Positions 9,806 to 32,179 of a DNA stretch of 32,680 nucleotides are shown here, in pieces. The translations under genes were made by a program, and so were the position numbers. The DNA comes from Candidatus Methylomirabilota bacterium (lineage in GTDB: Bacteria; Methylomirabilota; Methylomirabilia; Methylomirabilales; Methylomirabilaceae). Positions within the stretch are counted from its first letter, which is position 1, and each line of letters begins with the position of its first letter. The stretch spans positions 1 through 32,680 of the forward strand of contig JAGWQH010000073.1 of NCBI GenBank assembly GCA_028870115.1, given 5' to 3'. Under the pieces are notes generated by a model. It was given only the letters and a program-made list of their open reading frames with translations, did no database searches and was not told the origin of the DNA.

Positions 9806-9929
9806 GGCGTAAGAAACCTTCGCAGCAGATGACCGGATCCTGCGCGCATACCCCTCCCGGGATGAGACAGTACCCGTACTCCACATAATCTGCTGTTGTA
9901 TGCTCCCGCCTCAGCAGAAAGAGGAATCG

Positions 9930-11084
9930 GTGGATATCCTGATCGCAGGAGTCAGCGCGCGCGGCCTGGCGGAGTCAGCGGTTCGGAGCGGACTGGAGCA
10001 TCGGATCGTTGCGATCGACTATTTCGGAGATTTCGATCTGGGGCTGCTGTGCCCGCATCGTTCGATCAAGAGGGACTTGAACCTTCCGTATGACACCCGC
10101 CATCTGATCACGGCATCCTCAGGACTGTCATTTGATGCCCTTGTCTATGTTGCGAATCTGGAAAACCATCCATCAGTGATCGAGGCGGTGGCGAGCGGGA
10201 AGCCGATCCTGGGTAACAGCCCCGCCGTCCTGGCGCCGGTGAGACACCCTGCTCGATTCTTCGGGTTCCTTGCGCAAGCCGGCATCCCTGCGCCTGAGAT
10301 CGCCTTTGACTCTAAGCCTCTCAATTTCGATTCCGACACCATCTGGCTATGCAAACCGCTGCGAAGCGGAGGTGGGCACGGGATCGCTCCTTACCTACCC
10401 GGAAGTCACCTTGGGGTTGATTGTTTTCTGCAAGAGTACCTGGACGGCCTGCCATGCGGCGCGGTGTTCGCTGCGAATGGCAGGGATGCATGTCTGTTGG
10501 GTATCTCCGAACAGCTTATTGGCAGAAATGAGTTCGGAGCGGACGGCTTTCGCTACTGCGGGAGTATTCTCGGACCCATCGGGGCAGGGCAGGCCGAATG
10601 GGGCGACCTCGTGGAGAGCATACGACTGATTGTTCGCGCCATCACCCGAGAGTTTCATCTTGTGGGCGTCAACGGGATTGATTTCATCCTGAAGGGCAAG
10701 ACCGTCTATCCGATTGAGGTCAATCCCCGCTACACCGCCTCGATGGAGCTGGTCGAATGGGCCTATAGCCTGAATATCTTTAAGACACATCTCGACGCCT
10801 GCCAGGGCAAACTCCCCGACTTTGACCTCCTGGCCCATCCCGGCGCGGGCTACTTGGGTAAAGCTATTTCCTTCGCTGTTCAGACGCTGGTCTTCCATGA
10901 TCCACGGTGGTGGTTCGATCGGGGCGCTCGAGATCTGCCGCTTGACGGGGAACAGATCGGACAGGGGAAGCCGGTCTGCACGCTCTTCTCACGCGGACAA
11001 AGCCGGTTGGAGTGCTATAATCGGCTCGCGCGCACCGCCGCCGAGGTGGAACGGACATGCCTGCAGGCTACGACGTTGATATGA
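9930..11084 (+). CDS. ATP-grasp carboxylate-amine ligase family protein
   Basis: ATP-grasp enzymes join a carboxylate to an amine or thiol via an acyl-phosphate. The ATP-grasp core is visible: a lysine followed by a glycine-rich loop (CKPLRSGGGHGIAPY), the adenine-contact region FLQEYLDGLPCGAVF, and the metal ligands in GVNGIDFILKGKTVYPIEVNPR (Asp, then Glu and Asn). The N-terminal half has a Rossmann-like start, VDILIAGVSARGLAESAV. The frame is open from ATG 9900, but GTG 9930 is preferred because AGAGGA lies four bases before it. The fold and motifs resemble the group containing the archaeal tyramine-glutamate ligase MfnD, but the substrate cannot be read from sequence. It overlaps the decarboxylase gene, so the two probably act together. 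Confidence 0.8.
   Translation: MDILIAGVSARGLAESAVRSGLEHRIVAIDYFGDFDLGLLCPHRSIKRDLNLPYDTRHLITASSGLSFDALVYVANLENHPSVIEAVASGKPILGNSPAVLAPVRHPARFFGFLAQAGIPAPEIAFDSKPLNFDSDTIWLCKPLRSGGGHGIAPYLPGSHLGVDCFLQEYLDGLPCGAVFAANGRDACLLGISEQLIGRNEFGADGFRYCGSILGPIGAGQAEWGDLVESIRLIVRAITREFHLVGVNGIDFILKGKTVYPIEVNPRYTASMELVEWAYSLNIFKTHLDACQGKLPDFDLLAHPGAGYLGKAISFAVQTLVFHDPRWWFDRGARDLPLDGEQIGQGKPVCTLFSRGQSRLECYNRLARTAAEVERTCLQATTLI
11013..11021 (+). promoter_or_regulatory. Candidate internal extended -10 promoter
   Basis: A perfect TGCTATAAT lies within the 3' end of the ATP-grasp gene, 36 bases upstream of the decarboxylase start. No good -35 is present, but an extended -10 may not need one. It could allow separate expression of the decarboxylase. 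Confidence 0.4.
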
Positions 11085-12388
11085 CAAAAAATGTGACCCG
11101 CGATATACGTCTTTTTGCGTCATCGGCTACGCGCCGCCTTCTCACTCAGGACGGCCCGTTTCACGTGGAGGGCGGAGAGGTGTGGATCGAAAACCTTTCA
11201 TGCCGGGAGCTTGTGAAACCGCTCGGCACGCCGCTCCTGGTCTATTCGGCAGCGCGCTTGCGCGATAACATTGCGGAGGTGACAGCCGCTGCCAATACGT
11301 CCGCTTGGCCGGTCCGCATCCACTTCGCCCTGAAGGCATGCTATCTGGCGGGAGTCGTATCACTTCTCCAGAAGGGCGGGTTGAATGTCGAGGTCATGTC
11401 GGAATATGAGTACCTGCTGGCCAGGCGGATCGGCTTTTCCCCGGCTCAGGTCGTCGTGAACGGTCCGGCCAAGCGATCGGAATTCCTGGAGCGCGCTGTC
11501 ACCGATGGCGTGTCGCTCATCAATGTCGAGTCGCTGTCAGAGATCGCGTTTCTCCAGAGCCTGGGCCGACGACTTGGGAAGACGATTGAGGTGGGCATCA
11601 GGATCAACCCTCTCCTGTCACGGCGCCACCGTGGACCATTCACCCCTCCTGGATCAAAGTTTGGCTTTGACGTGCCCGGCGGCGAGGCGGCAGGCGCGGT
11701 GCGAAGAATCGTCGCATCGCGTTCCCTCTCTCTTCGGGCGGTGCATTGCCACAGCTATACCAGGCAATACAGGCCCGATGCGCATCGGGCCTGCGTGGCC
11801 GCAGTGGTGAAGTTTCTTCGGCGGCTGGAGGCCGACCTGGGGATCCGGATCCCCGTTCTCGATTTCGGGGGCGGATTTGGCAGTCGCTATCTCATGGAGG
11901 CTCAGGGACAGACATTCCAACATTTCATTCGCGAGATGCTGGATCCGCTTCGCGGCCTGCCTGGCGAACGACAGGTAATCGTTGAGCCCGGACGGTATCT
12001 GGTCAACGACGCTGCCGCATGCCTGACGAGCGTACTGGCATGTAAGCAAACAGCTCACAGACGCTGGACACTGGTGGATGCGGGCCGAAATATCTTACCG
12101 CCTCGCGAAAACGCTGAATATGTCGTTACGGCGTGTCAAGTGTCATCGGGGCGAACCCTGTATCACGTCGGTGATTTCCTGTGTGTCCCGTCGGAGCCCG
12201 TTCCGCTTTTGCTGGTTAGCGGGGTGATGAGGCCAGGTGATCTGCTCGCGGTGTTCAACGCCGGAGCCTACACCTTTTCCATGGCCCACAACTTCGGGGA
12301 GCCGATTCCGAATGCGATTTTGGTCGACAAAGGTGAGCGAACCTGGCTGTTTAAGAAGCGATCCGTTGAAGAGCAATTCATGAGATAA
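11057..12388 (+). CDS. PLP-dependent decarboxylase, diaminopimelate/ornithine decarboxylase family (fold type III)
   Basis: This family decarboxylates amino acids using pyridoxal phosphate in an alanine-racemase-like barrel. The PLP lysine is K93 in HFALKACYLAGVVSLL. The phosphate-binding glycine loop is VLDFGGGFGSRY, EPGRYLVNDAA follows, and a C-terminal cysteine region, HVGDFLCVPSEPV, corresponds to the substrate-binding loop of LysA. The ending (NAGAYTFSMAHNFGEPIPNAILV) is typical. At 443 residues it is normal. ATG 11057 is chosen because GAGGTGG precedes it at the right distance; ATG 11081, forming ATGA with the upstream stop, is an alternative. The SGG and CESTD-type motifs of true LysA are altered, so the substrate may not be diaminopimelate. 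Context pairs it with the ATP-grasp ligase. Confidence 0.82.
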   Translation: MPAGYDVDMTKNVTRDIRLFASSATRRLLTQDGPFHVEGGEVWIENLSCRELVKPLGTPLLVYSAARLRDNIAEVTAAANTSAWPVRIHFALKACYLAGVVSLLQKGGLNVEVMSEYEYLLARRIGFSPAQVVVNGPAKRSEFLERAVTDGVSLINVESLSEIAFLQSLGRRLGKTIEVGIRINPLLSRRHRGPFTPPGSKFGFDVPGGEAAGAVRRIVASRSLSLRAVHCHSYTRQYRPDAHRACVAAVVKFLRRLEADLGIRIPVLDFGGGFGSRYLMEAQGQTFQHFIREMLDPLRGLPGERQVIVEPGRYLVNDAAACLTSVLACKQTAHRRWTLVDAGRNILPPRENAEYVVTACQVSSGRTLYHVGDFLCVPSEPVPLLLVSGVMRPGDLLAVFNAGAYTFSMAHNFGEPIPNAILVDKGERTWLFKKRSVEEQFMR

Positions 12389-12435
12389 GGCGATACGCTC
12401 ACTTGACACATAGGGAGGCGTACCACGTAACGGGG

Positions 12436-14625
12436 ATGAGGGAACGCATCGTGCTGGCAGCGAAGGCAAAGTCCAGGTCGTATTCAATGATCATCGCTGT
12501 AGCGGGGCTTGTCGCCCTCGGCGCCCTCATACCGCTGTCCCCAGTGGCGTGGGGAGCCGATGCCGACTCGCCGGCGGCAAGTGGACCAGAGGAGACGGTT
12601 CGCCTGGAACCGGTTGTGGTCTCCGCCAGTCGAGTCGAACAGCGACTACGGGACGTCCCGGCCAATGTGACGGTCATCACACGGGAAGATATCGAACAAT
12701 CACCGGCCAGAACGGTGGATGATCTGCTGCGACAGGTCCCGGGGTTCAGTCTGTTCCGGCGCAGCAGCAGCCTGGTCACCCATCCGACGACACAGGGGGT
12801 CTCCCTTCGCGGGATCGGACCTAGCGGGGTAAGTCGGACGCTGGTGCTGTTGGACGGGGTCCCGCTCAACGATCCGTTCGGCGGGTGGGTCTACTGGAGC
12901 AACGTGCCGCTGGAGAGTATTGAGCGCATTGAGGTGACGCGTGGCGGCGGCTCCGGCGTCTACGGCAACTACGCGATGGGTGGCGTCATCAACATCATCA
13001 CCAGGCGGCCGGAGGCGCGGGTCGCTCAAGCCAAGCTTGATCTCGGAAATCGGGACACTGTAGATGCCAACCTGTTGGCAAGCCACGTGACCGGCCCATG
13101 GGGTGTCTCTCTCGAAGGCCGGTTCTTTGATACTGATGGTTATAAGATCGTCCGAAAGGATCAACGTGGAAAGATAGATGTCAATGCCAACTCCAGCGAC
13201 AAGACCTTTAACGGCCGGGTAGAGTACACCCCTTCCCTGGCTTCCTCGCTCTTTCTCGCCGGTAGCTTTTTTCGAGAGGATCGCGGCAACGGGACCCCGC
13301 TTCAGAATAATGAGACTGAGACGGGCTATGTGGCGACCGGAGGCCGGCTAAAAACCGCCGACGGCAGCGACTGGCAGCTCACAACCTTCTCTCACCTGCA
13401 GACGTTTAACAGTACGTTCACCTCTGCGGCTCCCGATCGGAACTCGGAAACCCCGGCGCTCAATCAGTTCGATGTCCCCTCAGCCGATGCAGGGGCAAAC
13501 CTGCAGTGGTCGAAACAGATCTTTCAGTTTCATCTGCTGACGGCCGGTACCGATCTGAGATGGATCGAGGGCGAAACAAACGAAGACTTCACATTCAGCC
13601 AGACCCTGGGTGACTTCACCCGACGGCGGAAGGCGGGAGGAGAACAGCTCTTAACGGGCGCCTACCTTCAGGATATTTTCACCCCCGCACCTGGATGGCA
13701 GGTGACGATTGCCGGCCGATTCGACTCCTGGCAAAGTTTCAATGCCGCTCGTGTTGAGAGGAATAAACAGACGGGGGCGATCACCAGGGATAACCAGTTC
13801 GACAATCGGGATGAGTTCGCCTTTAGCCCCAAGGTGGCTCTTCTCTACCATGCTACCGATCAACTCTCACTGAGAAGCTCGTTTTACAAGGGGTTTCGAG
13901 CGCCGACCATCAATGAACTCTTTCGGCCATTCAGGGTCCGGAACGACATTACTGAAGCCAACGCAGATCTGAATCCGGAACGGTTGATCGGTGGAGAGGT
14001 CGGGATGGACTATGCCATTATGAGTAACCTTCTGAGTCGGCTGACCGCTTTTTGGAACGAGGTGAAGGACCCGATCGTCAACGTCACCAAGGGAATCGGT
14101 CAAGGGGCGACCGTAGATCCTTGCGGCTTTGTCCCGGCCGGCGGCGTCTGCCGCCAGCGGCAAAACCTGGACAGAACGCGGATCAGAGGGATCGAGGCCG
14201 AGTTGGAGTATCGTCCGTTTCTGCGTTGGACCTTCTCAGGCAGTTATCTCTATAACAACACTCAAGTCGTAAGCGCTCCAACCCAGCCGGAGTTGGAGGG
14301 GAAAAGGATCGCCCAGGTGCCGAGGCATCAGTTTACCTTGAAACTGGGCTATACCAACCCGGCCCTCATCAACTTTTACGTCCAGGGGCGATTTGTCGGG
14401 GACCAATTCGAGGATGACCTCAATTCGCTGAAGCTCGGCGACTACTTTGTGGTGGACCTCATGCTCTGGCGGCCGATCCCTCTCCCCAAGCTGTCCGCGG
14501 GAGAAATTTTCCTGGCGGTGGAAAACCTCTTCGACAGGACGTATGAGGCCGGCAAGACGGCCGATGGCGTCGTCACCATCGGCGCCCCCGTGCTGGTCCA
14601 CGGCGGTGTCAGGGTTCGGTTCTGA
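12436..14625 (+). CDS. TonB-dependent outer-membrane receptor (first of two)
   Basis: A 729-residue outer-membrane beta-barrel for energised import of a scarce ligand. After a signal peptide (hydrophobic segment MIIAVAGLVALGALIPLSPVAWG) comes the TonB-box-like EPVVVSASR. The plug follows: VPANVTVITREDIEQSPA, DDLLRQVPG, LRGIGPSG, VLLDGVPLNDP, IERIEVTRGGGSGVYGNYA and GGVINIITRR. The barrel ends in aromatic F (VHGGVRVRF). The plug resembles the BtuB/CirA group. The frame is open from TTG 12403, but ATG 12436 gives a normal signal peptide; the ribosome site is weak either way. It follows the decarboxylase by 47 bases and precedes a second receptor by 22 bases. The ligand is unknown: a lanthanide chelate, copper chelate or corrinoid would all suit the setting. 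Confidence 0.93.
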   Translation: MRERIVLAAKAKSRSYSMIIAVAGLVALGALIPLSPVAWGADADSPAASGPEETVRLEPVVVSASRVEQRLRDVPANVTVITREDIEQSPARTVDDLLRQVPGFSLFRRSSSLVTHPTTQGVSLRGIGPSGVSRTLVLLDGVPLNDPFGGWVYWSNVPLESIERIEVTRGGGSGVYGNYAMGGVINIITRRPEARVAQAKLDLGNRDTVDANLLASHVTGPWGVSLEGRFFDTDGYKIVRKDQRGKIDVNANSSDKTFNGRVEYTPSLASSLFLAGSFFREDRGNGTPLQNNETETGYVATGGRLKTADGSDWQLTTFSHLQTFNSTFTSAAPDRNSETPALNQFDVPSADAGANLQWSKQIFQFHLLTAGTDLRWIEGETNEDFTFSQTLGDFTRRRKAGGEQLLTGAYLQDIFTPAPGWQVTIAGRFDSWQSFNAARVERNKQTGAITRDNQFDNRDEFAFSPKVALLYHATDQLSLRSSFYKGFRAPTINELFRPFRVRNDITEANADLNPERLIGGEVGMDYAIMSNLLSRLTAFWNEVKDPIVNVTKGIGQGATVDPCGFVPAGGVCRQRQNLDRTRIRGIEAELEYRPFLRWTFSGSYLYNNTQVVSAPTQPELEGKRIAQVPRHQFTLKLGYTNPALINFYVQGRFVGDQFEDDLNSLKLGDYFVVDLMLWRPIPLPKLSAGEIFLAVENLFDRTYEAGKTADGVVTIGAPVLVHGGVRVRF

Positions 14626-14647
14626 AGTAAGGGTGTGTGATCACCCT

Positions 14648-16882
14648 ATGCCATGGCATCGGCTTCGTGCTGCGGCGGTGTTCGGGATCTGGCTCGTTCT
14701 CAGCCCCGCCGAGGCGCAAGCTCAGGGTGCGGAGGCAGAGCCTGAGATTGTCCCGCTTCCGGAGATCGTGGTTACCGCGCCGACCCGCCTTGCCGAGGTT
14801 CCGCTTCCACTGGCGGAAATTCCTGCCAGCGTCCAGGTCATTACGGGCGACGAGATTGAGCGATCGCAAGTGCTCACTCTCCAGGACGTGATGCAGCAGC
14901 TTCCAGGGGTGCATCTGAACGACCAACAGGGTAACTCCATCCAGTTTGATCTCTCCTTACGAGGCTTTACCGGGACCTCGGTGACCGGCGTCCCGCAGGG
15001 AATCAGCGTCTTCATTGACGGGGTTCGGGTAAACGAACCGGCCGTCGAGGAGATCAATTTCGATCTGCTTCCGCTTGACGACATTGAACGGGTCGAGCTG
15101 ATTCGCGGCCCGATGGCGGTCTTCGGCAGGAACAGCCTGGCTGGGTCCATAAACATTATCACGCGACGCGGTGGTGAGGAACGGGAGATTGTGCCCGAGA
15201 TGTCGGGCGGCAGCTTCGGGCGCCGAAAGGCTGAGGGGCGCATCAGCGGAACCGCCGGGCCAATCGACTACTATTTTTCCGGCAGCCAGTTCAATGAGGA
15301 TGGCTGGAGGGATCAGTCCGACGGCCGCCTCTCGAAAGGTTTCGGGAAGCTCGGATTCCGTCAGGGCGGCACCGACATCACCCTCTCCTACCAGTTTCAG
15401 AACAACAGGATTTCGCAGTCCGGGACATTGCCCGAGAGCATCCTGAAGATGGATCGAACGCAGAACTTTACAGCGGGAGATTTCTTTAATCCAAATCTCC
15501 ACATGGGTATTCTCAACATCCACCAGCGGCTCGGAGGGGGCTTCTCTCTTGCCCTCAACGGGTTCGTCAGAAAGCTCGACACCGAGCAGTTCAACGTGAG
15601 TCTTCTCAGCGAAAACACCCGCTTGTTTAACGACACGCGCTCAGGCGGTGGGACGGTTCAACTGGCGCATGAGGGGCGTTTCTGGGGGCGTAAAAATACC
15701 CTGACCTTTGGGGCTGAGGGTGCGCGTCACGACGTCGATATCCGGGTGTTCCAGGAGCAGAACGATCAATCTCGTCAGCAATGTCAAGCGGGGGCGCTCG
15801 CCGCAGGGCAAGATCCGAATAACGCATGTCCGGAGAAGGCGCTTACCTCCGTCCTCTCCGATAAGCAGGATACGGTTGCGGCCTATATCCAGGATACCGC
15901 CGAACTGGGCCGCGGTCTGTTGCTGTCCAGTGACAATCTGTTCTTCACTGGGGCGCTGCGAGCCGACTATGTGCGGCACAATATCACCGATTCAAGTCCT
16001 GAAGAGCCGGGCAAGGCCTCGGGGAGAGCCTCGTTTAGTCGGGTCCTCCCCAGGGCTGGTATCAACTACAATCTTTCGGATAGCTACGGGCTCTATTTCT
16101 CATATTCACAAGGGTTTCGAGTGCCGGCATTCCTGGAGTTGACCTGCGCTCAACCCGACTCTCCTTGCGTCGGTTTGCAGGCGGGAGTGGCCCCGGATAC
16201 CGGTTTCTTCAAGCTCAGTCCCGTCCGGGCCAACAACTACGAAGTGGGCTTCCGAGCGCGCCCCCTGCCTTGGTTGGAGGGGAGCCTTGCGCTCTACCGG
16301 ACCGACGTCAGGGATGACATCTTTTCGGTAACTGATCCAGCCAAGCTCACGGTCTTTTTCCAGAACGTCGGCAACACCAGACGGCAAGGAATCGAATTCG
16401 GTCTGCGCGGGATCTTTCGAAATGTTCTGGAACCGTACGTGAACTATGCACTCACCCGGGCGATATTTCGGAATACCATCCAACTCGCCTCGCCACGGAC
16501 GCCAGGTATTCCTCAGCAGGTGGACGCGGGGAATGACATCCCCATGACCCCAAACCATCGGGTGAATGCTGGGCTCCGCTACCATTTGTACCGATGGCTG
16601 ACCCTTTCGCTTGACCTGAGCTACGTCGGCGACCAGTTCCTCCGAGGCGACGAGTCAAACACCCAGCCGAAGCTCGACGACTATGTAGTCTTGAACGCCG
16701 GCCTCGATCTCCACTGGCGGCGCTTCGCGGGATTCGTGAAGATCAACAATCTGACCAACAACCGCTATGAGACGTTTGGGACCTTCGCTCCCAACGCGAA
16801 GGCTGTCGGAGAGCCAATCGAGCGCTTCCTGAACCCGGCTCCGCCCATCAATGTCCTGGTCGGCGCCAGTTACCGATTCTAA
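14648..16882 (+). CDS. TonB-dependent outer-membrane receptor (second of two)
   Basis: A 744-residue receptor with a signal peptide (AAAVFGIWLVLSPAEAQA) and a TonB-box-like segment, PEIVVTAPTRL. The plug contains IPASVQVITGDEIERSQ, LQDVMQQLPGVHLN, LRGFTGTSVTGVPQGIS, VFIDGVRVNEPAVEEINF and a closing SINIITRRGG. The barrel contains two long loops with cysteines (QQCQAGALAAGQDPNNACPEK and a CAQPDSPC segment) and ends in YRF. The frame is open further upstream inside the previous gene, but ATG 14648 (MPWHRLRAAAVFG) is the sensible start. The two receptors differ clearly in sequence, so this is not a recent duplication. It is followed by tonB. Confidence 0.93.
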   Translation: MPWHRLRAAAVFGIWLVLSPAEAQAQGAEAEPEIVPLPEIVVTAPTRLAEVPLPLAEIPASVQVITGDEIERSQVLTLQDVMQQLPGVHLNDQQGNSIQFDLSLRGFTGTSVTGVPQGISVFIDGVRVNEPAVEEINFDLLPLDDIERVELIRGPMAVFGRNSLAGSINIITRRGGEEREIVPEMSGGSFGRRKAEGRISGTAGPIDYYFSGSQFNEDGWRDQSDGRLSKGFGKLGFRQGGTDITLSYQFQNNRISQSGTLPESILKMDRTQNFTAGDFFNPNLHMGILNIHQRLGGGFSLALNGFVRKLDTEQFNVSLLSENTRLFNDTRSGGGTVQLAHEGRFWGRKNTLTFGAEGARHDVDIRVFQEQNDQSRQQCQAGALAAGQDPNNACPEKALTSVLSDKQDTVAAYIQDTAELGRGLLLSSDNLFFTGALRADYVRHNITDSSPEEPGKASGRASFSRVLPRAGINYNLSDSYGLYFSYSQGFRVPAFLELTCAQPDSPCVGLQAGVAPDTGFFKLSPVRANNYEVGFRARPLPWLEGSLALYRTDVRDDIFSVTDPAKLTVFFQNVGNTRRQGIEFGLRGIFRNVLEPYVNYALTRAIFRNTIQLASPRTPGIPQQVDAGNDIPMTPNHRVNAGLRYHLYRWLTLSLDLSYVGDQFLRGDESNTQPKLDDYVVLNAGLDLHWRRFAGFVKINNLTNNRYETFGTFAPNAKAVGEPIERFLNPAPPINVLVGASYRF

Positions 16883-16937
16883 GATCACTGAGGCAGATGT
16901 AAGGAAAAAACTCTTCTCTTGCTTTGGGCGTATCCGC

Positions 16938-16943
16938 TATAAT
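16938..16943 (+). promoter_or_regulatory. Perfect -10 box immediately upstream of tonB
   Basis: TATAAT in the context CCGCTATAATTATTGTATG. No good -35 was found. The expected transcription start falls on or next to the tonB ATG at 16950, which also lacks a Shine-Dalgarno sequence, so a leaderless message is possible. Confidence 0.45.
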
Positions 16944-16949
16944 TATTGT

Positions 16950-17948
16950 ATGGCTCCAAAGGATACCTTCGCACTTGGACATCAAGGAGGCCATACCGAG
17001 GTCGGCCAGGCTCCCGATGTCGTTCATCCTGCCATGTCGTTGCTGGTTGGATCGCAGGCCAGATCGATTCCGTTGGGCCGATTTCTCCTCAGCTCTACCG
17101 GGTTCCATCTGATCCTGGCCTGGATGATTATCAGCTTTGGGCTTCCCAGGGCCCCATCAGCTCCGCGGCCTCTTGTTGTAACTCTCATTGAAAGCGCAAG
17201 CTCTGAATCATCCGTTGGGTCGGGACACCTTGTCCGCGCCCCAGCCGGTCAACAGTCGGCGCCAAGGCAGGGAACCCCGCCTATCAGCGTGAAAGCGAAG
17301 GCCCAACCTCGCGTTGCGTCTCCGCCTCCTGCACCCGTGCCGTCTTCAGCGGCTCAGACGGTTGAATCGGTCAAGTCACCAGCTGTGGATGAGCGAGTTG
17401 CCGAGCCAAAGGCGGTCGGCATGTCTGCCGATGGCTCACACGCAGTGGGCGGTAGCCCTCCGGGCGTCTTTGCAGCAGGTGGCCTGCCGGCGAGGCCGGT
17501 TCCGCTTGGTGCCGGCGGGGATGGCGAAGTCGGCTCCGGCTCAGCCGGTCGGGGTGGAGCGGGTCGGCTTGACGCCGCGTTGGCTGCGCCGCTGACACCT
17601 TCAGTGACTGTTGGTTCCCCTCATGGCGGGGCAGGCGGAGGAACTGGTTGGACAGGAAGTGGGACGGCTGGAGGACGGTTCTCGGCCCCGAACTATGGAA
17701 TCAATCCGCTTCCCAAGTACCCTCTTTTGGCGCGAGAAAAAGGGTACGAAGGAACGGTCTTCCTGCGAGTCCTGGTTCGGGCGGATGGTCGCGTGGAGCG
17801 GCTTGCTGTCGATCGATCCTCCGGGTATGAGATCCTGGACCGGGCAGCGGTGGACTCCGTCAAGGAGTGGGCGTTTTTTCCTGCCAAAAAAGCTGGAAAG
17901 TCGGTGGAAAGCTGGGTGCTGCTTCCCGTGAAGTTCGCGCTCAATTGA
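16950..17948 (+). CDS. tonB: TonB family energy transducer
   Basis: TonB links the inner-membrane proton motor ExbB-ExbD to outer-membrane receptors. The protein has a cytoplasmic stretch and one membrane helix at about 45-65 (FLLSSTGFHLILAWMIISFGL). A long low-complexity periplasmic linker follows, rich in Pro/Ala and then in Gly/Ser. The C-terminal TonB domain spans about 255-332: NPLPKYPLLAREKGYEGTV, VLVRADGRVERLAVDRSSG and AVDSVKEWAFFPA. The frame is open from 16851, but the N-terminus before ATG 16950 would overlap the receptor's end; ATG 16950 is preferred and ATG 17034 is possible. At 332 residues it is longer than E. coli TonB because of the glycine-rich linker. ExbB and ExbD are not in the window. 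Confidence 0.9.
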   Translation: MAPKDTFALGHQGGHTEVGQAPDVVHPAMSLLVGSQARSIPLGRFLLSSTGFHLILAWMIISFGLPRAPSAPRPLVVTLIESASSESSVGSGHLVRAPAGQQSAPRQGTPPISVKAKAQPRVASPPPAPVPSSAAQTVESVKSPAVDERVAEPKAVGMSADGSHAVGGSPPGVFAAGGLPARPVPLGAGGDGEVGSGSAGRGGAGRLDAALAAPLTPSVTVGSPHGGAGGGTGWTGSGTAGGRFSAPNYGINPLPKYPLLAREKGYEGTVFLRVLVRADGRVERLAVDRSSGYEILDRAAVDSVKEWAFFPAKKAGKSVESWVLLPVKFALN

Positions 17949-17961
17949 TATGGGATAGGGT

Positions 17962-19197
17962 GTGACGGCTCCTTTGCAAACCTGGAAATCTCTCTCCAAA
18001 TGTGCGTCCCTTCCTTTCGCTCTTTTCTTACTCATCTCGTCCGCTCCTCCTGCAACAGGCGCCGAACCGGCAAGCAGATCTTTCTATGACGAAAAGGGGC
18101 AGGTCATCCGGGAGGAGGTCGATAGCGCCGGTTCCGGGCGGATTGATACATGGGTTACCTATCAGAATGGCCGCCCGATCCTCCAGGCCGTGGACACGAA
18201 TAAGGATGGTAAGCCCGATGCCTGGTATCACCTGTCTCCGGATCGTCAGGTAGAGAGGGCGGAGAAAGACACCAACGGCGATGGCAAGTCCGATGTCTGG
18301 ATTACGTACCAGCAGGGAGTCGCAATCAGGGCGGAGCAGGACCTGGATTTCGACGGCCGGGCCGATCGGTTTATCTTTTACGAAAAAGGGAAGGTCGTCC
18401 GGACCGAGGAATCGTTGAAACGTGATGGGAAGATCACGCTCTGGTCGTATTATGATGCTGCCGGCGCGCTCATCCGGGATGAGGAGGACAAAAAGGGGGT
18501 CGGTCGACCAACGCTCTTCTCCTACTACCAGGAGGGAAAGCTCTTGCGGCGCGAGGAGGATACCAACGGATCGGGGCGGATCGACCGCTGGTCGTATTAC
18601 GACAAGGACGAGCGCCTGATCCGGCGTGAGGCCGCTCGAAAGGGATCCGGACGGCCTGACGTCTGGGCCTACTATGAGAACGGACAGATCATCAAGCAGG
18701 AGGAGGATACGTTGGGCCAAGGTCGGCCGAATGTTACTTATTTCTTCCAGGCGGGCGCGCTTTCCCGGCGAGAAGAGGACACGCAGGGAGTTGGCCGCGT
18801 AAACCTGATCGACTGGTACGAGAACGACAAGCCGGTTAAGCGGCAACAGGATACCAGACGGCAGGGGAAAATGGATGTTGTGACCTACCTTCGGGAAGGA
18901 GCTATTCAACGGCAAGAGGTTGATACCAAATACGAGGGGCGATACGACCTGATTCGCATCTTTGAGAACGGCCGTCTTGCCAGAGAAGAGTACGACACCA
19001 ATGGGGACGGTCGATCGGACGTCTGGGTCTCTTACAATGAGACTGGTGAAAAGGTGATGCAGGAAGAGGATACTGATTACACCGGCAGGGCGCGTGTCCG
19101 TTTTCGCTTTGCAGGAGGGAAGGTTGTAAGTAAGGAGCTGCTACGCGAAGAGCGAGCGGACAGCCCGCCGCGCCTTCTGATACCTAAGATTCCGTAA
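17962..19197 (+). CDS. Secreted protein of fourteen 24-residue repeats with Ca-type Asp loops
   Basis: Family not recognised. A signal peptide (SLPFALFLLISSAPPATGA, about 16-34) precedes fourteen tandem repeats from about residue 53 to 392, each about 24 residues. The consensus is roughly xDTxxxGRxDxWxYYxxGxLxRxE. Four repeats keep a full DxNxDGxxD or DxDxDGxxD loop (DTNKDGKPD, DTNGDGKSD, DLDFDGRAD, DTNGDGRSD). Others have lost acidic positions (DTNGSGRID, DTRRQGKMD), so only some are likely to bind metal. The aromatic WxYY part suggests a beta-rich solenoid like MORN/YwqK-type repeats. The GTG start at 17962 lies 13 bases after the tonB stop with GGGATAGGG upstream, so it is probably cotranscribed with tonB. 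A role in periplasmic metal (Ca or lanthanide) handling is inference from loops and neighbours. Confidence 0.8.
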   Translation: MTAPLQTWKSLSKCASLPFALFLLISSAPPATGAEPASRSFYDEKGQVIREEVDSAGSGRIDTWVTYQNGRPILQAVDTNKDGKPDAWYHLSPDRQVERAEKDTNGDGKSDVWITYQQGVAIRAEQDLDFDGRADRFIFYEKGKVVRTEESLKRDGKITLWSYYDAAGALIRDEEDKKGVGRPTLFSYYQEGKLLRREEDTNGSGRIDRWSYYDKDERLIRREAARKGSGRPDVWAYYENGQIIKQEEDTLGQGRPNVTYFFQAGALSRREEDTQGVGRVNLIDWYENDKPVKRQQDTRRQGKMDVVTYLREGAIQRQEVDTKYEGRYDLIRIFENGRLAREEYDTNGDGRSDVWVSYNETGEKVMQEEDTDYTGRARVRFRFAGGKVVSKELLREERADSPPRLLIPKIP

Positions 19198-19269: not shown

Positions 19270-19381
19270 TCCACCGCGTCAAACGGCGTCTCTGACTGAA
19301 TAGTGTGGCTTCCCGGGGCGTAAGAGACGTGCACGGTCTCTCCTAGATGCAATCGAGTTGGTGCCGATCGCGTTCAAGGGC

Positions 19382-21544
19382 ATGAAGGTTTCCACCCATT
19401 TGGCAACGAACAGGAAAACGGGAAGAGCTGTCTCTTCCTGCGGCTGGCGCGGGCCGGTCTTTCTTTCGCTTGCTGCCACCTTCTCTCTCTCGCTCATTGC
19501 CCCTCAAGCTCACGCTCTGGAGCCGGCCTTTGGTCAAGCCGCTGAGGAGGCCGCCGCGAAGCTCACCGAAGCCTTCCCGGCCGTTCACGGGTCGGTTACC
19601 GGGGTCGAAAGGGACCGGGTCCTGATCGACCTGGGGGCCAAGCAGGTGTATCAGGGGATGGAATTGCAGGTCTACCGGGAAGGCGATGAGGTCAAACACC
19701 CGGTGACCGGCGAGGTGCTGGGGAGGCGAGATAAAAGGCTGGGTGTCCTCAGAGTTGTTGAAGTGAAAGAGAGATTCTCGGAGGCTACCATTGTCTCCAG
19801 GGAGGAGGGAGCTACCATTAGGGCCAAGGATCTGGTCCGGGTCAGTTCAGACCGTCTATTGGTTGCCCTTCCCCTTATCGATGCCGGTGGTGTGAAGGAA
19901 GCGAATGTCCAATCGGTTACAAAAGATCTGGCCATTGCGCTGGCCAAGACCGGCCACTTTATGGTAATCGAGGATCCTCTTCTCAGGGCGGCCCTTGGGG
20001 GGGAGCATGCTTCGCGGGTGGAATCATTCAGCGATCTTTCGACGCTGAAGCTGTTAGCGGAGAAGACCCATGTTCAGCTCCTCGTTCTGGGCAAACTCAC
20101 CCCCGGTCTCCAGGGACTGTTTCTGAATCTGCAGGTTATGTCGGTTTTCACCGGCGCGCCGTTGACCGTCGCGAGCGTCGAGGTGGCGGAACGTGGACCG
20201 ATGGTTATAGCCGCCCCCTCACCTCCGGCAAGGCCGACCCTCCGGTCTGGTTCAGGGCAGGCAGCCTCGGGAGCGTCACGGCCTTCTTTCGTCCATGCCG
20301 AGCGTCAACTCTCCGAGCCTTCGAGGACCGCTGAGCAACCGAAAGGCCCCCATTCAGAGATCGTATCATCCCGTAAGAGCCCTGGTGCCCAGGGAGCGTT
20401 GCGAGAGCCGGAGACGCCTTCGTTCCTGACTGCGGGTGAGAACGAAGCGGTGCGTTCTGGCGATAAAGGTTCACGCGAGTCCGTCACGTTCGAGCTGTCC
20501 GATCCGCTGCTCGCGCTGGCGGTGGGAGATCTGGATGGGGATCAGCGGCCTGAGATCGTTGGGATGACCTCTTCCGAGGTGATTGTCTATCGGTGGCAGA
20601 ATCAGCGACTGGCGCCAATTGCCAGGGTGAGCAGTCCCCGGTTTATTCGTCACCTACACATTGACGTCGGTACGATTAACGGCTCCGACCATGCCCAGAT
20701 TGTTGTGACGGCCCTGTCTGGGGCTCGGAACGATCTTCATTCCTTTATCCTGGAGCTTCAAGGCGGCCAGCTCGTCCGGATCGCCGATAATCTGGGCTAT
20801 TTCCTTCGCGTGGTCACTGGTCCAGGCATTGAGACGCCCATCCTGGTCGGTCAGCGGATGGGGGAACTCACCGCGTTTGAAGGGCCGATCGTCCGGCTGA
20901 CTTGGGAAGGCGGGCGGTACATTGAAGGGCGGCCCCTCACCCTTCCGGTCCAGGTGAAGAATCTCTATGAATTTGCGCCGATCAAGGCCGTTGGCGATCA
21001 GATTTCAGAGGTTGCTGTCATCAGCGAGCAGCGGGTCAAGACGTACGGGAGCGAGGGCAAGCCATCCTGGGAAGCCAAAGAGGATCTGGGGGACGTCGAT
21101 CACCTCGCCTTTTCCCACATTCCCACGTACCGGGCTCTTCAGGCGAAATACGGGCTTAAGTCGGGGATTGCGATCACGCCTGAAGAGTACGCAGTTCAGC
21201 AGATCCTGCCGCGGCGCGTCCTGGTCGAGGCGTCGCCCCTGTGGGGTAACGCCAGGACAGAGCTTCTCACCTTTACGAATCCGAAAAAGGTGGGAATGTT
21301 TCGGGTTGAGTCGTCCCTTCCTCCCAGTCAAGTCGTGGCGTTTGACCGTCAGGACGGAACCTTTGCGCGGGGGTGGGAGACGGTCCCTCTTGAGGGGAAG
21401 GTGCGTGACGTTGCCGTGGCTGATCTGAATGGCGCCGGTAGAAAGGATCTGATTGTACTATCGGCTGTCAAAGAAAAGGGTCTGGTCGCGTATCTGCAGG
21501 ACGGGTCGCACGGCATCATCAGTGTTTTTTCCTTCATCCGGTGA
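19382..21544 (+). CDS. Secreted protein with FlgT-like N-terminus and FG-GAP/VCBS-type propeller
   Basis: Function unknown. After a signal peptide (FLSLAATFSLSLIAPQAHA, about 23-41) comes a domain resembling the C-terminal domain of FlgT: GSVTGVERDRVLIDLGAKQVYQGMEL, then VTGEVLGRR. A segment like CsgG/FlgT middle domains (LLVALPLIDAGG, ALAKTGHFMVIED) follows, then a Ser/Pro-rich linker at about 280-370. The C-terminal half has FG-GAP style loops, ALAVGDLDGDQRPEIVGMTS and DVAVADLNGAGRKDLIVLS, suggesting a seven-bladed propeller that may bind calcium. ATG 19382 with CAAGGG upstream is preferred over TTG 19358. It has its own promoter and lies 234 bases before xoxF. It could be an envelope scaffold; a methanol-oxidation role is only suggested by position. 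Confidence 0.75.
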   Translation: MKVSTHLATNRKTGRAVSSCGWRGPVFLSLAATFSLSLIAPQAHALEPAFGQAAEEAAAKLTEAFPAVHGSVTGVERDRVLIDLGAKQVYQGMELQVYREGDEVKHPVTGEVLGRRDKRLGVLRVVEVKERFSEATIVSREEGATIRAKDLVRVSSDRLLVALPLIDAGGVKEANVQSVTKDLAIALAKTGHFMVIEDPLLRAALGGEHASRVESFSDLSTLKLLAEKTHVQLLVLGKLTPGLQGLFLNLQVMSVFTGAPLTVASVEVAERGPMVIAAPSPPARPTLRSGSGQAASGASRPSFVHAERQLSEPSRTAEQPKGPHSEIVSSRKSPGAQGALREPETPSFLTAGENEAVRSGDKGSRESVTFELSDPLLALAVGDLDGDQRPEIVGMTSSEVIVYRWQNQRLAPIARVSSPRFIRHLHIDVGTINGSDHAQIVVTALSGARNDLHSFILELQGGQLVRIADNLGYFLRVVTGPGIETPILVGQRMGELTAFEGPIVRLTWEGGRYIEGRPLTLPVQVKNLYEFAPIKAVGDQISEVAVISEQRVKTYGSEGKPSWEAKEDLGDVDHLAFSHIPTYRALQAKYGLKSGIAITPEEYAVQQILPRRVLVEASPLWGNARTELLTFTNPKKVGMFRVESSLPPSQVVAFDRQDGTFARGWETVPLEGKVRDVAVADLNGAGRKDLIVLSAVKEKGLVAYLQDGSHGIISVFSFIR

Positions 21545-21778: not shown

Positions 21779-23608
21779 ATGAGTGTGAAACGATGCACGT
21801 CACTGATCGGGGGTCTGCTGATCCTGGTTGGGGGCCTTGTCGTGACGGCGCCCATGGCCTCGGCCAACGACGAGTTGGTGAAGTTGCAAAAAGACGATGG
21901 CCAATGGGCGCAGCAGGGCAAGAATTATGCGGCGACCCGCTACAGCGGACTGAACCAGATTACATCCGATAACGTAAAAAACCTGAAAGTTGCCTGGTCA
22001 TTCTCGCTGGGGACCTTAAACGGCCAAGAGGGAGGTCCGCTGGTTGTCGGCGACACAATGTATGTCCACAGCTCCTATTCTTCGGGTAATTCGCATAATA
22101 TCTTCGCGCTTGACCTGTCCAAGGAGGGGGCCCCAATCAAGTGGAAGTACACAGCCAAACACGATCCGCGTGCGGTTCCGGTCGCCTGCTGCGACCTGGT
22201 TCATCGGGGCCTGAATTATGCGGACGGCAAGATCCTTTACCAGACGCTCGACGGCATCGTCATTGCGCTCGATGCGAAGACCGGTAAGGAGATCTGGAAG
22301 ACTCGGAATGCCGACCCTTCCAAGGGTGAGACCAATACCGGTGCCGGCATGGTAATTCACGACAACTATATCGTCGGCGTTGCCGGGGGCGAATTCGGGG
22401 TTCGCGGCTGGATCGCGGCCTACAGTATCAAAGACGGCAAGCAGGTCTGGAAGGCCCGCAGCATGGGGCCCGATGATGAGCTCCTGCTTGCATCCGACTT
22501 CAACGCTGCCAACCCGCATTACGGACGATTTGGCGAGGGAACGAAGAGCTGGCCCGGTGAGCAGTGGAAGAAGGGCGGTGGCACCACCTGGGGTTACTGG
22601 TCGTACGATCCCGAGTTGAATCTTCTCTACTACAGCACCGGCAACCCGGGGACCTGGAATCCTGCCCCGCGGAAAGGCGGCGACAACAAGTGGTCGATGA
22701 CCATCTGGGCTCGCAATCCTGATACCGGGATGGCCAAGTGGGCCTACCAGATGACCCCGTGGGACAACTGGGACTACGATGGGATCAATGAGTCCGTCCT
22801 GACCGAGCAGACGATCGGCGGCAAGAAGCACAAGGTGCTCACTCACTTCGACAGGAACGGCTTTGTCTACACCCTTGACCGCACCAACGGCACACTCCTC
22901 TCGGCCGAGCCGTTCGTTTATGTCAACTGGGCGAAGGGGATCGACCTGAAGACGGGACGGCCGATCGTCAACCCCGACAAATTAACCAAACAGGGTGTAG
23001 ACACCAAGAATATCTGCCCCTGCGCGATGGGTGGTAAGAACCAGGTGCCTGTTGCCTATTCCCCGGTGACGAACCTCTTCTATGCCTCCGTCAACAATAT
23101 GTGCATGAACTATGAGGGGGTTCTGGTTCAGTATACGGCAGGGGCTCCGTATGTGGGCGCCAACGTCCTGATGTTTAACGGCCACGAGGGCAAGGACAAC
23201 TGGTGGGGTGATGTCATTGCCTGGGATGCCGTCAAAGGGAAAAAGGTATGGGATATCAAAGAGCAGCAACCCCCATGGAGCGGACCTCTCGCGACCTCCA
23301 CGAACGTCGTCTTCTACGGCACGATGGACGGCTGGTTCAAGGCGGTTGATGCCAGAGATGGCAAGCTCCTGTGGAAGCATAAGGTCGGTTCCGGGATCAT
23401 CGGCAATCCGATGACCTTCAAGGGGCCTGACGGTAAGCAGTATGTCGCTGTGTACTCCGGGATCGGCGGGTGGTTCGGCGCCACCGTATCGCTCGATCTT
23501 CCGCCGGACGACCCGACCGCTGCGTTGGGCGGGGTGAATGCCGCCTACCTGTCCGGCTTGCCTAAGGCCTCAAGCAGGGGCGGGACGCTTTACGTTTTTG
23601 GTCTCTAA
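21779..23608 (+). CDS. xoxF: Lanthanide-dependent PQQ methanol dehydrogenase XoxF
   Basis: XoxF oxidises methanol (to formaldehyde or formate) in the periplasm with PQQ and a lanthanide ion, passing electrons to cytochrome XoxG. It has a signal peptide (LIGGLLILVGGLVVTAPMASA) and the PQQ propeller with tryptophan-docking repeats. Vicinal cysteines C137-C138 (VACCDLVHRG) form the disulfide ring over PQQ. The motif DNWDYDGINE has D332 and D334; the second aspartate is the one that distinguishes lanthanide XoxF (DYD) from calcium MxaF (DYA). At 609 residues it is full length. ATG 21779 follows GAGGGAGG. The clade cannot be fixed by eye; a type-2 XoxF would fit an NC10 host. A strong terminator follows, and PQQ genes are not in the window. 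Confidence 0.97.
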   Translation: MSVKRCTSLIGGLLILVGGLVVTAPMASANDELVKLQKDDGQWAQQGKNYAATRYSGLNQITSDNVKNLKVAWSFSLGTLNGQEGGPLVVGDTMYVHSSYSSGNSHNIFALDLSKEGAPIKWKYTAKHDPRAVPVACCDLVHRGLNYADGKILYQTLDGIVIALDAKTGKEIWKTRNADPSKGETNTGAGMVIHDNYIVGVAGGEFGVRGWIAAYSIKDGKQVWKARSMGPDDELLLASDFNAANPHYGRFGEGTKSWPGEQWKKGGGTTWGYWSYDPELNLLYYSTGNPGTWNPAPRKGGDNKWSMTIWARNPDTGMAKWAYQMTPWDNWDYDGINESVLTEQTIGGKKHKVLTHFDRNGFVYTLDRTNGTLLSAEPFVYVNWAKGIDLKTGRPIVNPDKLTKQGVDTKNICPCAMGGKNQVPVAYSPVTNLFYASVNNMCMNYEGVLVQYTAGAPYVGANVLMFNGHEGKDNWWGDVIAWDAVKGKKVWDIKEQQPPWSGPLATSTNVVFYGTMDGWFKAVDARDGKLLWKHKVGSGIIGNPMTFKGPDGKQYVAVYSGIGGWFGATVSLDLPPDDPTAALGGVNAAYLSGLPKASSRGGTLYVFGL

Positions 23609-23731: not shown

Positions 23732-24622
23732 ATGATGAACCGAAAAGTTGTCATTCTCAGCGGATTCGTTGTTATGATGATGCTGTTTCCCCTTGTCGGC
23801 AAAGCCTTGGGGAGTCACATCACACAACTGAAGGTCTGTGGCGATCCGGACAATCTACCCTTTTCCAATAAGAAATCAGAAGGGTTTGAGAATAAGATTG
23901 CAGACGTGATCGCTAAGGAATTGGGTGCAGAGCTCACCTACTTCTGGTGGCCTCATCAGCGGGGGTTGGTCCGGAGAGCGTTGCGACCTGGACTGTGCGA
24001 TGTCATGATCTCGATCCCGCAGGGTTGGGATCAGGTTCTCTGGACGAAGCCCTATTATCGGTCGGCATACGTTCTTATCTATCCAAAGAATCGGGGACTT
24101 CAAATCAAATCGCTCGACGACCCGATTCTGAAGCGGCTCAAGATCGGGGTCTATATCAATACCCCACCGGCGGAGGCGTTGGCCAATAGGGATATCAGAG
24201 CAAACGTTGTTGGCTACAGCCTCTTTGATACCTCCAAGAACGAGCGTTCAGATAAGATCATCCGAGACCTTGTTGCCGGTGAGATCGATGTTATGCTGGA
24301 TTGGGGGCCGATGGCCGGCTATGCTATGAAACGATTGAATGGATCGTCGCCTCTTGAGGTAGTCCTCCTTCAGGGCGGGGAACCTGGGAGCCCCTTCACC
24401 TTCGAGTTTTCCATGGGGGTGAGGGAAGGCGATACGACACTTAAGAAGGATCTTGAGGAGGCGGTCAGTAAGCGGCATGTCGAGATCAGAAAGATCCTGG
24501 AGGATTACGGCGTACCCCTTCTACCACTCCTGGCACGCGAGCAGTTTTCAAAGGTCGAAGAGAAGCCTGGGGAGGTCTTTTACCGTCGTTTCGATCGAGA
24601 CGATCCCCTTATCTCTTATTAA
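23732..24622 (+). CDS. xoxJ: XoxJ/MxaJ-like periplasmic substrate-binding-fold protein
   Basis: XoxJ is a periplasmic binding-fold partner of XoxF, thought to help its activation or assembly. It has a signal peptide (VVILSGFVVMMMLFPLVGKALG). The mature part begins LKVCGDPDNLPFSNKKSEGFENKIADVIAKELGAELTY, the classic family 3 solute-binding opening of MxaJ-type proteins. WPHQRGLVRRALRPGLCDVMISIP and LDWGPMAGYAMKR follow. At 296 residues it is typical. The start is one of two adjacent ATGs, 23732 or 23735, after AAGGGAAG. Its place directly after xoxF and before a c-type cytochrome is the standard xoxF-J-G neighbourhood. Confidence 0.9.
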   Translation: MMNRKVVILSGFVVMMMLFPLVGKALGSHITQLKVCGDPDNLPFSNKKSEGFENKIADVIAKELGAELTYFWWPHQRGLVRRALRPGLCDVMISIPQGWDQVLWTKPYYRSAYVLIYPKNRGLQIKSLDDPILKRLKIGVYINTPPAEALANRDIRANVVGYSLFDTSKNERSDKIIRDLVAGEIDVMLDWGPMAGYAMKRLNGSSPLEVVLLQGGEPGSPFTFEFSMGVREGDTTLKKDLEEAVSKRHVEIRKILEDYGVPLLPLLAREQFSKVEEKPGEVFYRRFDRDDPLISY

Positions 24623-24672: not shown

Positions 24673-25152
24673 ATGGGACGTAAAAAGTCGCTTTTTGCCA
24701 TATCGATTCTTACCGTTATGATGTTGGGATGCGGCCAGAGTCTCACGGCTCAGGCCCAGCAAGAGCCGGCGAAGCCCGTAGAAAACGGTCAGCAACCGAA
24801 AGGATCGGAAGCCTCCGCAACCGTAGATCAGCAGAAACCGAAAAAGCTCAACCCGTTCACCGGCAACGCAGACGCAGTCACAGAAGGACGTCAATTGTAT
24901 CTGCAGTCCGGCTGTCCAGGCTGTCATGGCTCAGGCGGTGGCGGCGCGATGGCCGGGGCCACGCCACTGCTGGGAGGTCGCTGGAAGTTTGGAGGTGACG
25001 ACGAAACCCTCTTTAAAGTGATCAAGGGGACCTACCCGGGACAGACCATGCCGGCGGTTTTCGGGGCAGTTCTGAAAGATGAACAGATCTGGAAGATCAT
25101 TGCCTGGATCCGGTCGGTCTACAAAGGCGATCCTCAAGAGATCGTCTGGTAG
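24673..25152 (+). CDS. xoxG: c-type cytochrome, probable XoxG electron acceptor
   Basis: A single-heme class I cytochrome c that would accept electrons from XoxF in the periplasm. The N-terminus is a signal peptide with a possible lipobox at C17 (MMLGC), so it may be a lipoprotein; cleavage after TAQA is the alternative. A Pro/Gln/Lys-rich linker of about 40 residues follows. The heme site is CPGCH (C81, C84, H85), and the likely axial ligand is M126 in GQTMPAVFG. ATG 24673 follows a GAGGA site and lies 50 bases after xoxJ. At 159 residues it is compact. Sequence homology to other XoxG cytochromes is expected to be low, so the symbol rests on position. Confidence 0.85.
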   Translation: MGRKKSLFAISILTVMMLGCGQSLTAQAQQEPAKPVENGQQPKGSEASATVDQQKPKKLNPFTGNADAVTEGRQLYLQSGCPGCHGSGGGGAMAGATPLLGGRWKFGGDDETLFKVIKGTYPGQTMPAVFGAVLKDEQIWKIIAWIRSVYKGDPQEIVW

Positions 25153-31369: not shown

Positions 31370-32179
31370 TCAAGCGAGCGCCTTTCTGGCCGAGTTAAGC
31401 CCTTCCCAGAAAATATAGAGGGCATCAAGCGCTCGTCGCCCGCCCTCTATAAACTTATCTTCATCGAACTTGGGGTGAGAAAAGGTTTCCAGAAGCTCCC
31501 CGTACACATTCTCCCCATGCCCCGTTTCAAGCGCGAAGTGATGCTCGAAAAAGCCGAGGGGGATCAGCTCCAGGCCATCCGGCAGACGCTGTGTTTCATT
31601 GAAGCTCTTCAGTCCGATGATCAGTTGCTTCCAGAAATTTGTGGATTCCGCCTCCTCGCCTTTCCCGATTCCCCACGCCGCCCACGTCTCGATTCCGTAA
31701 CTGGCGCCGCCGGCAATCCGCCAATCAAAGCTTCCATACGCCTTCTCAAGCTCAACCAGAAAGCGCCGTGTCGGTGGGGTGGCGGTTCTCCAGTCGCCCA
31801 ACCGCTCCGGATCCAGTTTGAGTGGCGCGCAGGTCTGGCGCAACCACTCGATATGGGCCCACTCCGTTCTAAACGCCTGGTTCTCCGGGGTCTTATCCGG
31901 GCCGAGTCTCACGCCGCATTCGTTGACGAGGATGTGGCGCGCTAGTTTTTCGCTTTCAAGGTTGGTTGCACGGGCGACTCGCTTGGCTTGTATCGGGACA
32001 AAATGCTTGGAAAAGACTGCGAACTGTTCGAGGAAATGGATGACTTGAGCGGTATTGGCTTTCCCGCAACTGAACCAGATACAGAACCTGTTGTTCCTGA
32101 TCACTTGATGCCGATGGACCTTCAGTTCAACCTTCTTCCAAAAGGCCTCAAATCGCTCCTGTCGGGCATTGCTCTGCAT
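31370..32179 (-). CDS. Heme-oxygenase-like diiron oxidase (HDO) family protein
   Basis: HDO proteins have an all-helical fold and a diiron centre for oxygen-dependent chemistry; CADD, UndA and SznF are known members, and PqqC has the fold. The expected six ligands can be placed: E87 (VNECG), H109 (EWAHIEWL), E164 (YGIETWAAW) and H214-x3-E218-x2-H221 (HHFALETGHGEN). The last triad has Glu where CADD has Asp. The 269-residue length and helical pattern fit. ATG 32179 has a GAGAGGG site and a promoter about 100 bases upstream. It is the first gene of the eight-gene minus-strand run, so its chemistry probably feeds the aromatic genes. Substrate unknown. Confidence 0.72.
   Translation of the reverse strand: MQSNARQERFEAFWKKVELKVHRHQVIRNNRFCIWFSCGKANTAQVIHFLEQFAVFSKHFVPIQAKRVARATNLESEKLARHILVNECGVRLGPDKTPENQAFRTEWAHIEWLRQTCAPLKLDPERLGDWRTATPPTRRFLVELEKAYGSFDWRIAGGASYGIETWAAWGIGKGEEAESTNFWKQLIIGLKSFNETQRLPDGLELIPLGFFEHHFALETGHGENVYGELLETFSHPKFDEDKFIEGGRRALDALYIFWEGLNSARKALA

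What the first reader, a model, noticed from the sequence alone, without database searches (positions are those of the whole stretch)
17962..19197. Secreted 14 x 24-residue repeat protein with Ca/lanthanide-type loops beside tonB and xoxF
Seen: fourteen tandem repeats of about 24 residues (xDTxxxGRxDxWxYYxxGxLxRxE), four with intact DxNxDGxxD or DxDxDGxxD loops and others decayed. Known: such loops bind Ca2+ in EF-hand-like and dockerin-like folds, and lanmodulin shows related loops can select lanthanides. Inferred: this could be a periplasmic lanthanide or calcium buffer serving XoxF. I recognise no described family with this architecture.
Basis: partly seen in the sequence, partly recalled or inferred. 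Interest (0 to 1): 0.78.

Follow-up and report, generated by a model that had tools for sequence, protein, structure and literature searches.

The report
TonB-linked repeat protein, not lanthanide buffer
Next to a methane-oxidising bacterium's TonB gene lies a secreted protein built of 14 repeats, predicted to form a long flat rod with a few calcium-type loops on one edge; it follows TonB, not the rare-earth enzyme XoxF, across related bacteria, so it is more likely a structural partner of the TonB machinery than a rare-earth store.

Summary
The ORF 17962-19197 (+) of this Ca. Methylomirabilis MAG encodes a 411-aa protein with a signal-peptide-like N-terminus and 14 repeats of about 24 residues; four loops are strictly D-x-[DN]-x-D-G-x-x-D. 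A confident AlphaFold2 model shows 30 strands in 15 hairpins. Foldseek's best matches are MORN-repeat, Rhs/YD-repeat and OspA-type hairpin sheets, not EF-hand or dockerin. The loops are therefore integrin/FG-GAP-like strand-loop-strand sites on one edge of a predicted rod.

The XoxF inference is weak. xoxF lies downstream in all 13 testable Methylomirabilis loci. In related families the orthologue instead sits in a Gly-zipper/TonB/repeat/repeat-lipoprotein/VWA/ExbB/ExbD cluster, and xoxF, where found, is on another contig. Eleven phylum genomes have XoxF without the repeat protein; two incomplete MAGs have the repeat protein without a close XoxF. A tonB gene precedes it by 1-113 bp in all 18 testable loci. 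Intact loops vary from 1 to 8 between orthologues while the scaffold stays, and the 'decayed' loops are mostly fixed non-chelating forms.

Best reading: a periplasmic MORN-like scaffold partnering a TonB system, with structural Ca2+. Lanthanide selectivity is untested.

The parts
17962..19197 (+). Repeat protein (REP), 411 aa, 14 x ~24-residue repeats; predicted MORN-like beta-hairpin sheet
17962..18063 (+). Signal-peptide-like N-terminus (residues 1-34, probable cleavage after TGA), no conserved lipobox
   Evidence: sequence by eye; pLDDT < 50 over residues 1-32
18193..18219 (+). Intact loop 2, DTNKDGKPD (residues 78-86)
   Evidence: broken (DTGKHGKPD) in L044 and L045
18268..18294 (+). Intact loop 3, DTNGDGKSD (residues 103-111)
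   Evidence: D1 and D9 invariant in 18 rows
18340..18366 (+). Intact loop 4, DLDFDGRAD (residues 127-135); ligand positions kept as D, D/N, D, D in 17 of 18 rows (E at position 5 in one)
18994..19020 (+). Intact loop 13, DTNGDGRSD (residues 345-353); ligand positions kept in 17 of 18 rows
16851..17948 (+). tonB; a tonB gene is directly upstream of REP in 18 of 18 testable loci
   Evidence: PF03544 1.6e-22; spacing 1-113 bp
14447..16882 (+). TonB-dependent receptor (TBDR2); ORF start overlaps the previous gene, so the true start is probably downstream
   Evidence: PF00593/PF07715; synteny
12403..14625 (+). TonB-dependent receptor (TBDR1)
   Evidence: PF00593/PF07715
19358..21544 (+). Protein with FlgT_C-like and FG-GAP regions, between REP and xoxF in the genus
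21779..23608 (+). XoxF-type PQQ methanol dehydrogenase (WDYD lanthanide-type motif)
   Evidence: TIGR03075 7e-194
23732..24622 (+). MoxJ/XoxJ-like periplasmic protein
   Evidence: TIGR03871 6e-85
24673..25152 (+). Cytochrome c (MoxG/XoxG-like)
   Evidence: PF13442, TIGR03872 below its cut-off

Best explanation
REP is a secreted, periplasmic MORN-like protein: about 15 beta hairpins stack into one long, single-layer antiparallel sheet (30 strands, roughly 14 nm if spaced at the usual 4.8 A; the length is inferred). Tight turns lie on one edge and the 9-residue D-x-[DN]-x-D-G-x-x-D-type loops on the other. The few intact loops probably bind Ca2+ to rigidify the edge; in many other loops Lys or Arg at ligand position 3 may take the place of the metal. 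It is made in an operon-like arrangement with TonB and most likely acts as an extended spacer or docking surface for the TonB machinery in the periplasm. In Methylomirabilis that TonB module has become linked to TonB-dependent receptors and xoxF. Shown here: the repeats, genomic linkage, loop conservation. Predicted: the fold. Inferred: location, Ca2+ as the metal, physical partnership with TonB.
For: Fold: pLDDT block means about 88-97 from residue 41 to 390, 30 strands in hairpin register, loops between hairpins; Foldseek top hits are MORN, Rhs and OspA beta sheets; sub-threshold MORN_2 match. TonB: tonB directly upstream, same strand, 1-113 bp, in 18 of 18 testable loci, in genomes of three families and although the two tonB types share no significant BLASTP similarity. 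Outside the genus the cluster is Gly-zipper/TonB/REP/REP2/VWA/ExbB/ExbD; REP2 is a paralogue with a lipobox-like motif, a glycine-rich stretch and a C-terminal array with the same hairpins. Structural metal: loops 4 and 13 keep their ligands in 17 of 18 rows; Dx[DN]xDG loops in strand-loop-strand settings, such as integrin blades, bind Ca2+ (PMC3123361); across 154 distinct loops K/R at position 3 is associated with loss of D/N at position 5 (Fisher p = 5e-5, not corrected for relatedness).
Against: No metal or TonB binding can be tested here. Gene neighbourhood shows a shared operon, not contact. The loop geometry could not be read from the model, and AlphaFold2 places no metal. TM-scores to single templates are low (0.1-0.4), so only the fold class is supported. 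In the genus no homologue of the cluster's VWA protein was found, and in the window's genome the MotA/ExbB family matches lie on other contigs.
Confidence: 0.5

Rival explanations
1. Periplasmic lanthanide or calcium buffer (lanmodulin-like function) serving XoxF.
For: Linked to a lanthanide-type xoxF in 13 of 13 testable genus loci; four Ca-type loops with Asp at position 9.
Against: Linkage is genus-only; orthologues in related families are linked to TonB/ExbBD, with xoxF, where found, on other contigs. XoxF without REP in 11 genomes; REP without a close XoxF in two incomplete MAGs. Only 1 to 8 intact loops between orthologues. Weakly acidic, net about -7. Beta-sheet fold, not an EF-hand switch.
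Confidence: 0.08
2. Lanthanide-uptake accessory in Methylomirabilis: an older TonB partner protein recruited to a receptor/TonB module that imports a Ln complex or PQQ for XoxF, holding or handing over Ln3+ in the periplasm.
For: In the genus the order receptor(s)-TonB-REP-FlgT-XoxF-XoxJ-cytochrome is conserved; an ATP-grasp gene and a PLP-decarboxylase gene precede the receptors in the window and L035. A TonB-dependent transporter belongs to the lanthanide chelation cluster of Methylorubrum extorquens AM1 (PMC10875860).
Against: The receptors' substrates are unknown; TBDR2 matches PqqU and siderophore models only below cut-off. Two of the four intact loops are variable even within the genus.
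Confidence: 0.17
3. Cell-surface adhesin or binding repeat protein like Leptospira Lsa25.6.
For: NCBIfam NF050087 matches at 9.6e-18 (window) and up to 9.8e-24 (L051), best relative by profile.
Against: 64-84 bits against a cut-off of 150; short, shifting matches, as expected of shared repeats; always in a tonB operon, which suggests a periplasmic role.
Confidence: 0.12
4. MORN_2/YwqK-type protein annotated as an antitoxin, acting on a neighbouring toxin.
For: MORN_2 sub-threshold match and fold matches to MORN proteins, some named YwqK antitoxin.
Against: Signal-peptide-like N-terminus; no toxin-like neighbour among the genes examined in the window or the relatives' clusters.
Confidence: 0.02

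Closest known systems
MORN repeat variant (Pfam PF07661, MORN_2; YwqK-type proteins)
   Same: 22-24-residue repeats with a W/Y-x-YY...G core, beta-hairpin sheet; sub-threshold profile match and top fold matches in the viral library
   Different: Below the Pfam cut-off (20.7 of 29.6 bits); D-x-[DN]-x-D-G-x-x-D loops between hairpins; probable signal peptide; tonB operon
Lsa25.6 family adhesin of Leptospira (NCBIfam NF050087)
   Same: Same kind of D-rich hairpin repeat by profile, 1e-17 to 1e-24
   Different: About half the curated score at best; longer; different genomic setting; no evidence of surface exposure
Integrin-type calcium blade / FG-GAP loops (PF01839; PMC3123361)
   Same: Nine-residue DxDxDGxxD loop in a strand-loop-strand setting; marginal FG-GAP match over the loop
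   Different: Not a beta propeller; loops line one edge of an open sheet
Lanmodulin
   Same: D-rich loops with Asp at position 9; periplasmic; methylotroph
   Different: Lanmodulin is a helical EF-hand protein with Pro at loop position 2 (own knowledge); here the model has beta strands, the intact loops have T or L at position 2, and the number of loops varies
Rhs/YD repeats and Borrelia OspA single-layer sheet
   Same: Best solved-structure matches: stacked hairpins, OspA having an open single-layer part
   Different: No closed Rhs shell, no sequence relation found, no toxin or core-associated domain

Membership tests
EF-hand / lanmodulin | Helix-loop-helix fold | tested here: not met
   All hairpin strands, no helix in the repeat region
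EF-hand / lanmodulin | 12-residue loop with Glu/Asp at position 12 | tested here: not met
   In the four intact loops position 12 is Y, I, I, V, in the following strand (sequence)
EF-hand / lanmodulin | Very high Ln3+ affinity and Ln over Ca selectivity | not testable with these tools
   Needs protein titration
MORN_2 (PF07661) | Score above Pfam gathering cut-off | tested here: not met
   20.7 bits against 29.6
MORN_2 (PF07661) | Tandem hairpin sheet of 22-24-residue repeats | tested here: met
   15 predicted hairpins, period 24-25; MORN proteins lead the viral fold matches
Lsa25.6 adhesin (NF050087) | Score above curated cut-off of 150 bits | tested here: not met
   64.5 bits for the window, 84.0 at most among the orthologues scanned; none over cut-off in 95 genomes
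Integrin-type Ca loop (Dx[DN]xDGxxD, strand-loop-strand) | Loop consensus in a strand-loop-strand setting | tested here: met
   Four loops, each between two predicted strands
Integrin-type Ca loop (Dx[DN]xDGxxD, strand-loop-strand) | Bound Ca2+ | not testable with these tools
   No metal in AlphaFold2; coordinates not readable
TonB-system component | Conserved operon-like linkage with tonB | tested here: met
   18 of 18 testable loci, gap 1-113 bp
TonB-system component | Physical or functional dependence on TonB | not testable with these tools
   Needs pull-down or deletion
XoxF accessory protein | Co-occurrence and linkage with xoxF beyond the genus | tested here: not met
   xoxF, where found, on another contig in related families; XoxF without REP in 11 genomes

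The most novel reading that the evidence does not exclude
A TonB-dependent lanthanide-uptake module in Methylomirabilis in which a MORN-like periplasmic rod with integrin-type loops, recruited from an older TonB/ExbBD/VWA cluster, holds or relays Ln3+ from the outer-membrane receptor towards XoxF: a non-EF-hand lanthanide-binding protein.
Probability: 0.1. Interest if true: 0.85.

Novelty: new variant of a known kind. Interest (0 to 1): 0.38.

Why it matters
If right, it describes a repeat-protein partner of TonB systems that has no model of its own in the Pfam and NCBIfam libraries searched here, tied to tonB in genomes of three families of one order and, outside Methylomirabilis, part of a TonB/REP/REP2/VWA/ExbB/ExbD cluster. 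It shows why a neighbour of xoxF should not be read as lanthanide-related before the linkage is checked outside the genus. The genus-specific join between this TonB module and xoxF still makes the receptors and the TonB here good candidates for studying rare-earth uptake in nitrite-dependent methane oxidisers.

Tried and rejected
EF-hand/dockerin fold: rejected by the model. Close solved-structure homologue by sequence: only marginal protoglobin matches, E 0.005-0.8, judged spurious because protoglobin is helical. Loops as recent decay of an all-Ca array: rejected, because most non-canonical loops are fixed across the genus. Wider spread: a profile search over 94 phylum genomes finds it only in the window's own order; plasmids give one weak Gloeothece hit; the genome-contig scan gave only Methylomirabilota. 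Phyla outside Methylomirabilota were not searched with a profile, so 'order-restricted' means within this phylum. Structured RNA in the window: none by Rfam. Promoter scan uninformative. Literature: no mention of TonB or a repeat protein in the Methylomirabilis genome comparison (PMC6094997); the 2015 paper on the M. oxyfera XoxF enzyme is not held. A first script for TonB spacing failed and was redone. A first loop count by loose regular expression was replaced by one on registered loops. REP2 model: only its C-terminal hairpin array is confident.

Full report
What is there. The ORF 17962-19197 (+) encodes 411 aa with a signal-peptide-like N-terminus (judged by eye) and 14 registered repeats of about 24 residues. 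Self-similarity at lags 24, 49 and 73 is 0.70-0.74 per residue against a best of -0.42 in 200 shuffles. Four loops are strict D-x-[DN]-x-D-G-x-x-D. The window lies in a Ca. Methylomirabilis genome: the close relatives by DNA scan are Methylomirabilota MAGs, two of them named Methylomirabilis, and 13 of 14 other genomes of the genus carry an orthologue, 69-83% identical.

Fold. AlphaFold2 with 18 natural sequences gives mean pLDDT 86.9, with block means of about 88-97 over residues 41-390: 30 strands in 15 hairpins, tight turns alternating with the Asp loops. Foldseek against PDB returns Rhs/teneurin/Tc-type hairpin shells and OspA single-layer sheets; against viral models it returns MORN-repeat proteins, best E 2.5e-17. 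TM-scores are low, so I claim the class of fold, not a template. Pfam shows a sub-threshold MORN_2 match, plus an FG-GAP match just over its cut-off (23.0 against 22.1 bits) whose best stretch is 17 residues at loop 3. A helical EF-hand or dockerin is not supported. The Dx[DN]xDG loop is known in strand-loop-strand settings, including integrin blades, where it binds Ca2+ (PMC3123361).

Loops. Across 18 orthologues, loops 4 and 13 keep their ligand positions in 17 rows each; loop 2 is lost in two genus members and loop 3 in one. The strict count is 3-4 in the genus, 7-8 in four relatives, and 1 in L051, although the repeat scaffold stays. Most other loops are fixed in the genus in a non-chelating form, such as loop 12, DTKYEGRYD. 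Over 154 distinct loops, Lys or Arg at position 3 goes with loss of D/N at position 5 (Fisher p = 5e-5, uncorrected for relatedness), which suggests a charge substitute for the metal. This looks like structural metal use rather than storage; net charge is about -7.

Neighbourhood. In the genus: receptor - TonB - REP - FlgT/FG-GAP - XoxF - XoxJ - cytochrome c, with xoxF downstream in all 13 testable loci. XoxF carries the WDYD motif, typical of lanthanide-dependent enzymes (own knowledge). In the other families of the order the orthologue lies in Gly-zipper - TonB - REP - REP2 - VWA - ExbB - ExbD, complete in L049 and L050 and partial on shorter contigs. REP2 is a paralogue with a lipobox-like motif and a C-terminal hairpin array. 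Where found in those genomes, xoxF lies on a different contig, without tonB or REP in the stretch read. A tonB gene precedes REP by 1-113 bp in all 18 testable loci, although the two tonB types share no significant BLASTP similarity.

Co-occurrence. By profile, REP is in 19 of 94 phylum genomes, all in the window's order. XoxF homologues at 48% identity or more without REP: G026, G035, G039, G043, G045, G049, G052, G062, G063, G075, G088. REP without a close XoxF: G023 and G031, 88% and 85% complete, so absence there is weak evidence; G019 has only PQQ dehydrogenases at 43% or less. G026, 99% complete, has XoxF and a divergent FlgT homologue beside it, no REP, and one MotA/ExbB-family match; G029 and G031 have two, one of them in the REP cluster.

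Verdict. The sequence finding is real and was described carefully. The lanthanide-buffer inference leans on a genus-only neighbourhood. The more general partner is TonB. I commit to a MORN-like periplasmic scaffold with structural Ca2+ in a TonB system (0.5), and keep a Ln-uptake accessory as the main rival (0.17).

Noticed in passing
window 9900-12388: An ATP-grasp enzyme (PF02655) and a LysA-like PLP decarboxylase (TIGR01048 and FslC-like matches below cut-off) precede two TonB-dependent receptors and tonB; the same order is seen in L035. Possible small metallophore synthesis and uptake set next to xoxF.
   Followed up: partly
window 19358-21544: 728-aa protein with FlgT_C-like and FG-GAP regions between the repeat gene and xoxF throughout the genus; a homologue lies divergently beside xoxF in G026 (L068), so it, unlike REP, may be tied to xoxF beyond the genus.
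   Followed up: partly
L050 5613-13481; L049 3958-11213: Gly-zipper/TonB/REP/REP2/VWA/ExbB/ExbD cluster in related families: a TonB-type module with a VWA protein for which I found no description.
   Followed up: partly
window 14447-16882: TonB-dependent receptor with a below-cut-off match to the PQQ receptor PqqU (1.1e-46, 159.5 of 1200 bits); siderophore models match as well, so the substrate is open.
   Followed up: no
L040 336-16775: The complete genome G005 has a second PQQ methanol dehydrogenase set (43% identical to the window's XoxF) about 7-9 kb upstream of REP, in addition to the xoxF downstream of it.
   Followed up: no
window 31370-32179: Weak match to Haem_oxygenas_2 (PF14518, iron-containing redox enzyme), below its cut-off.
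   Followed up: no
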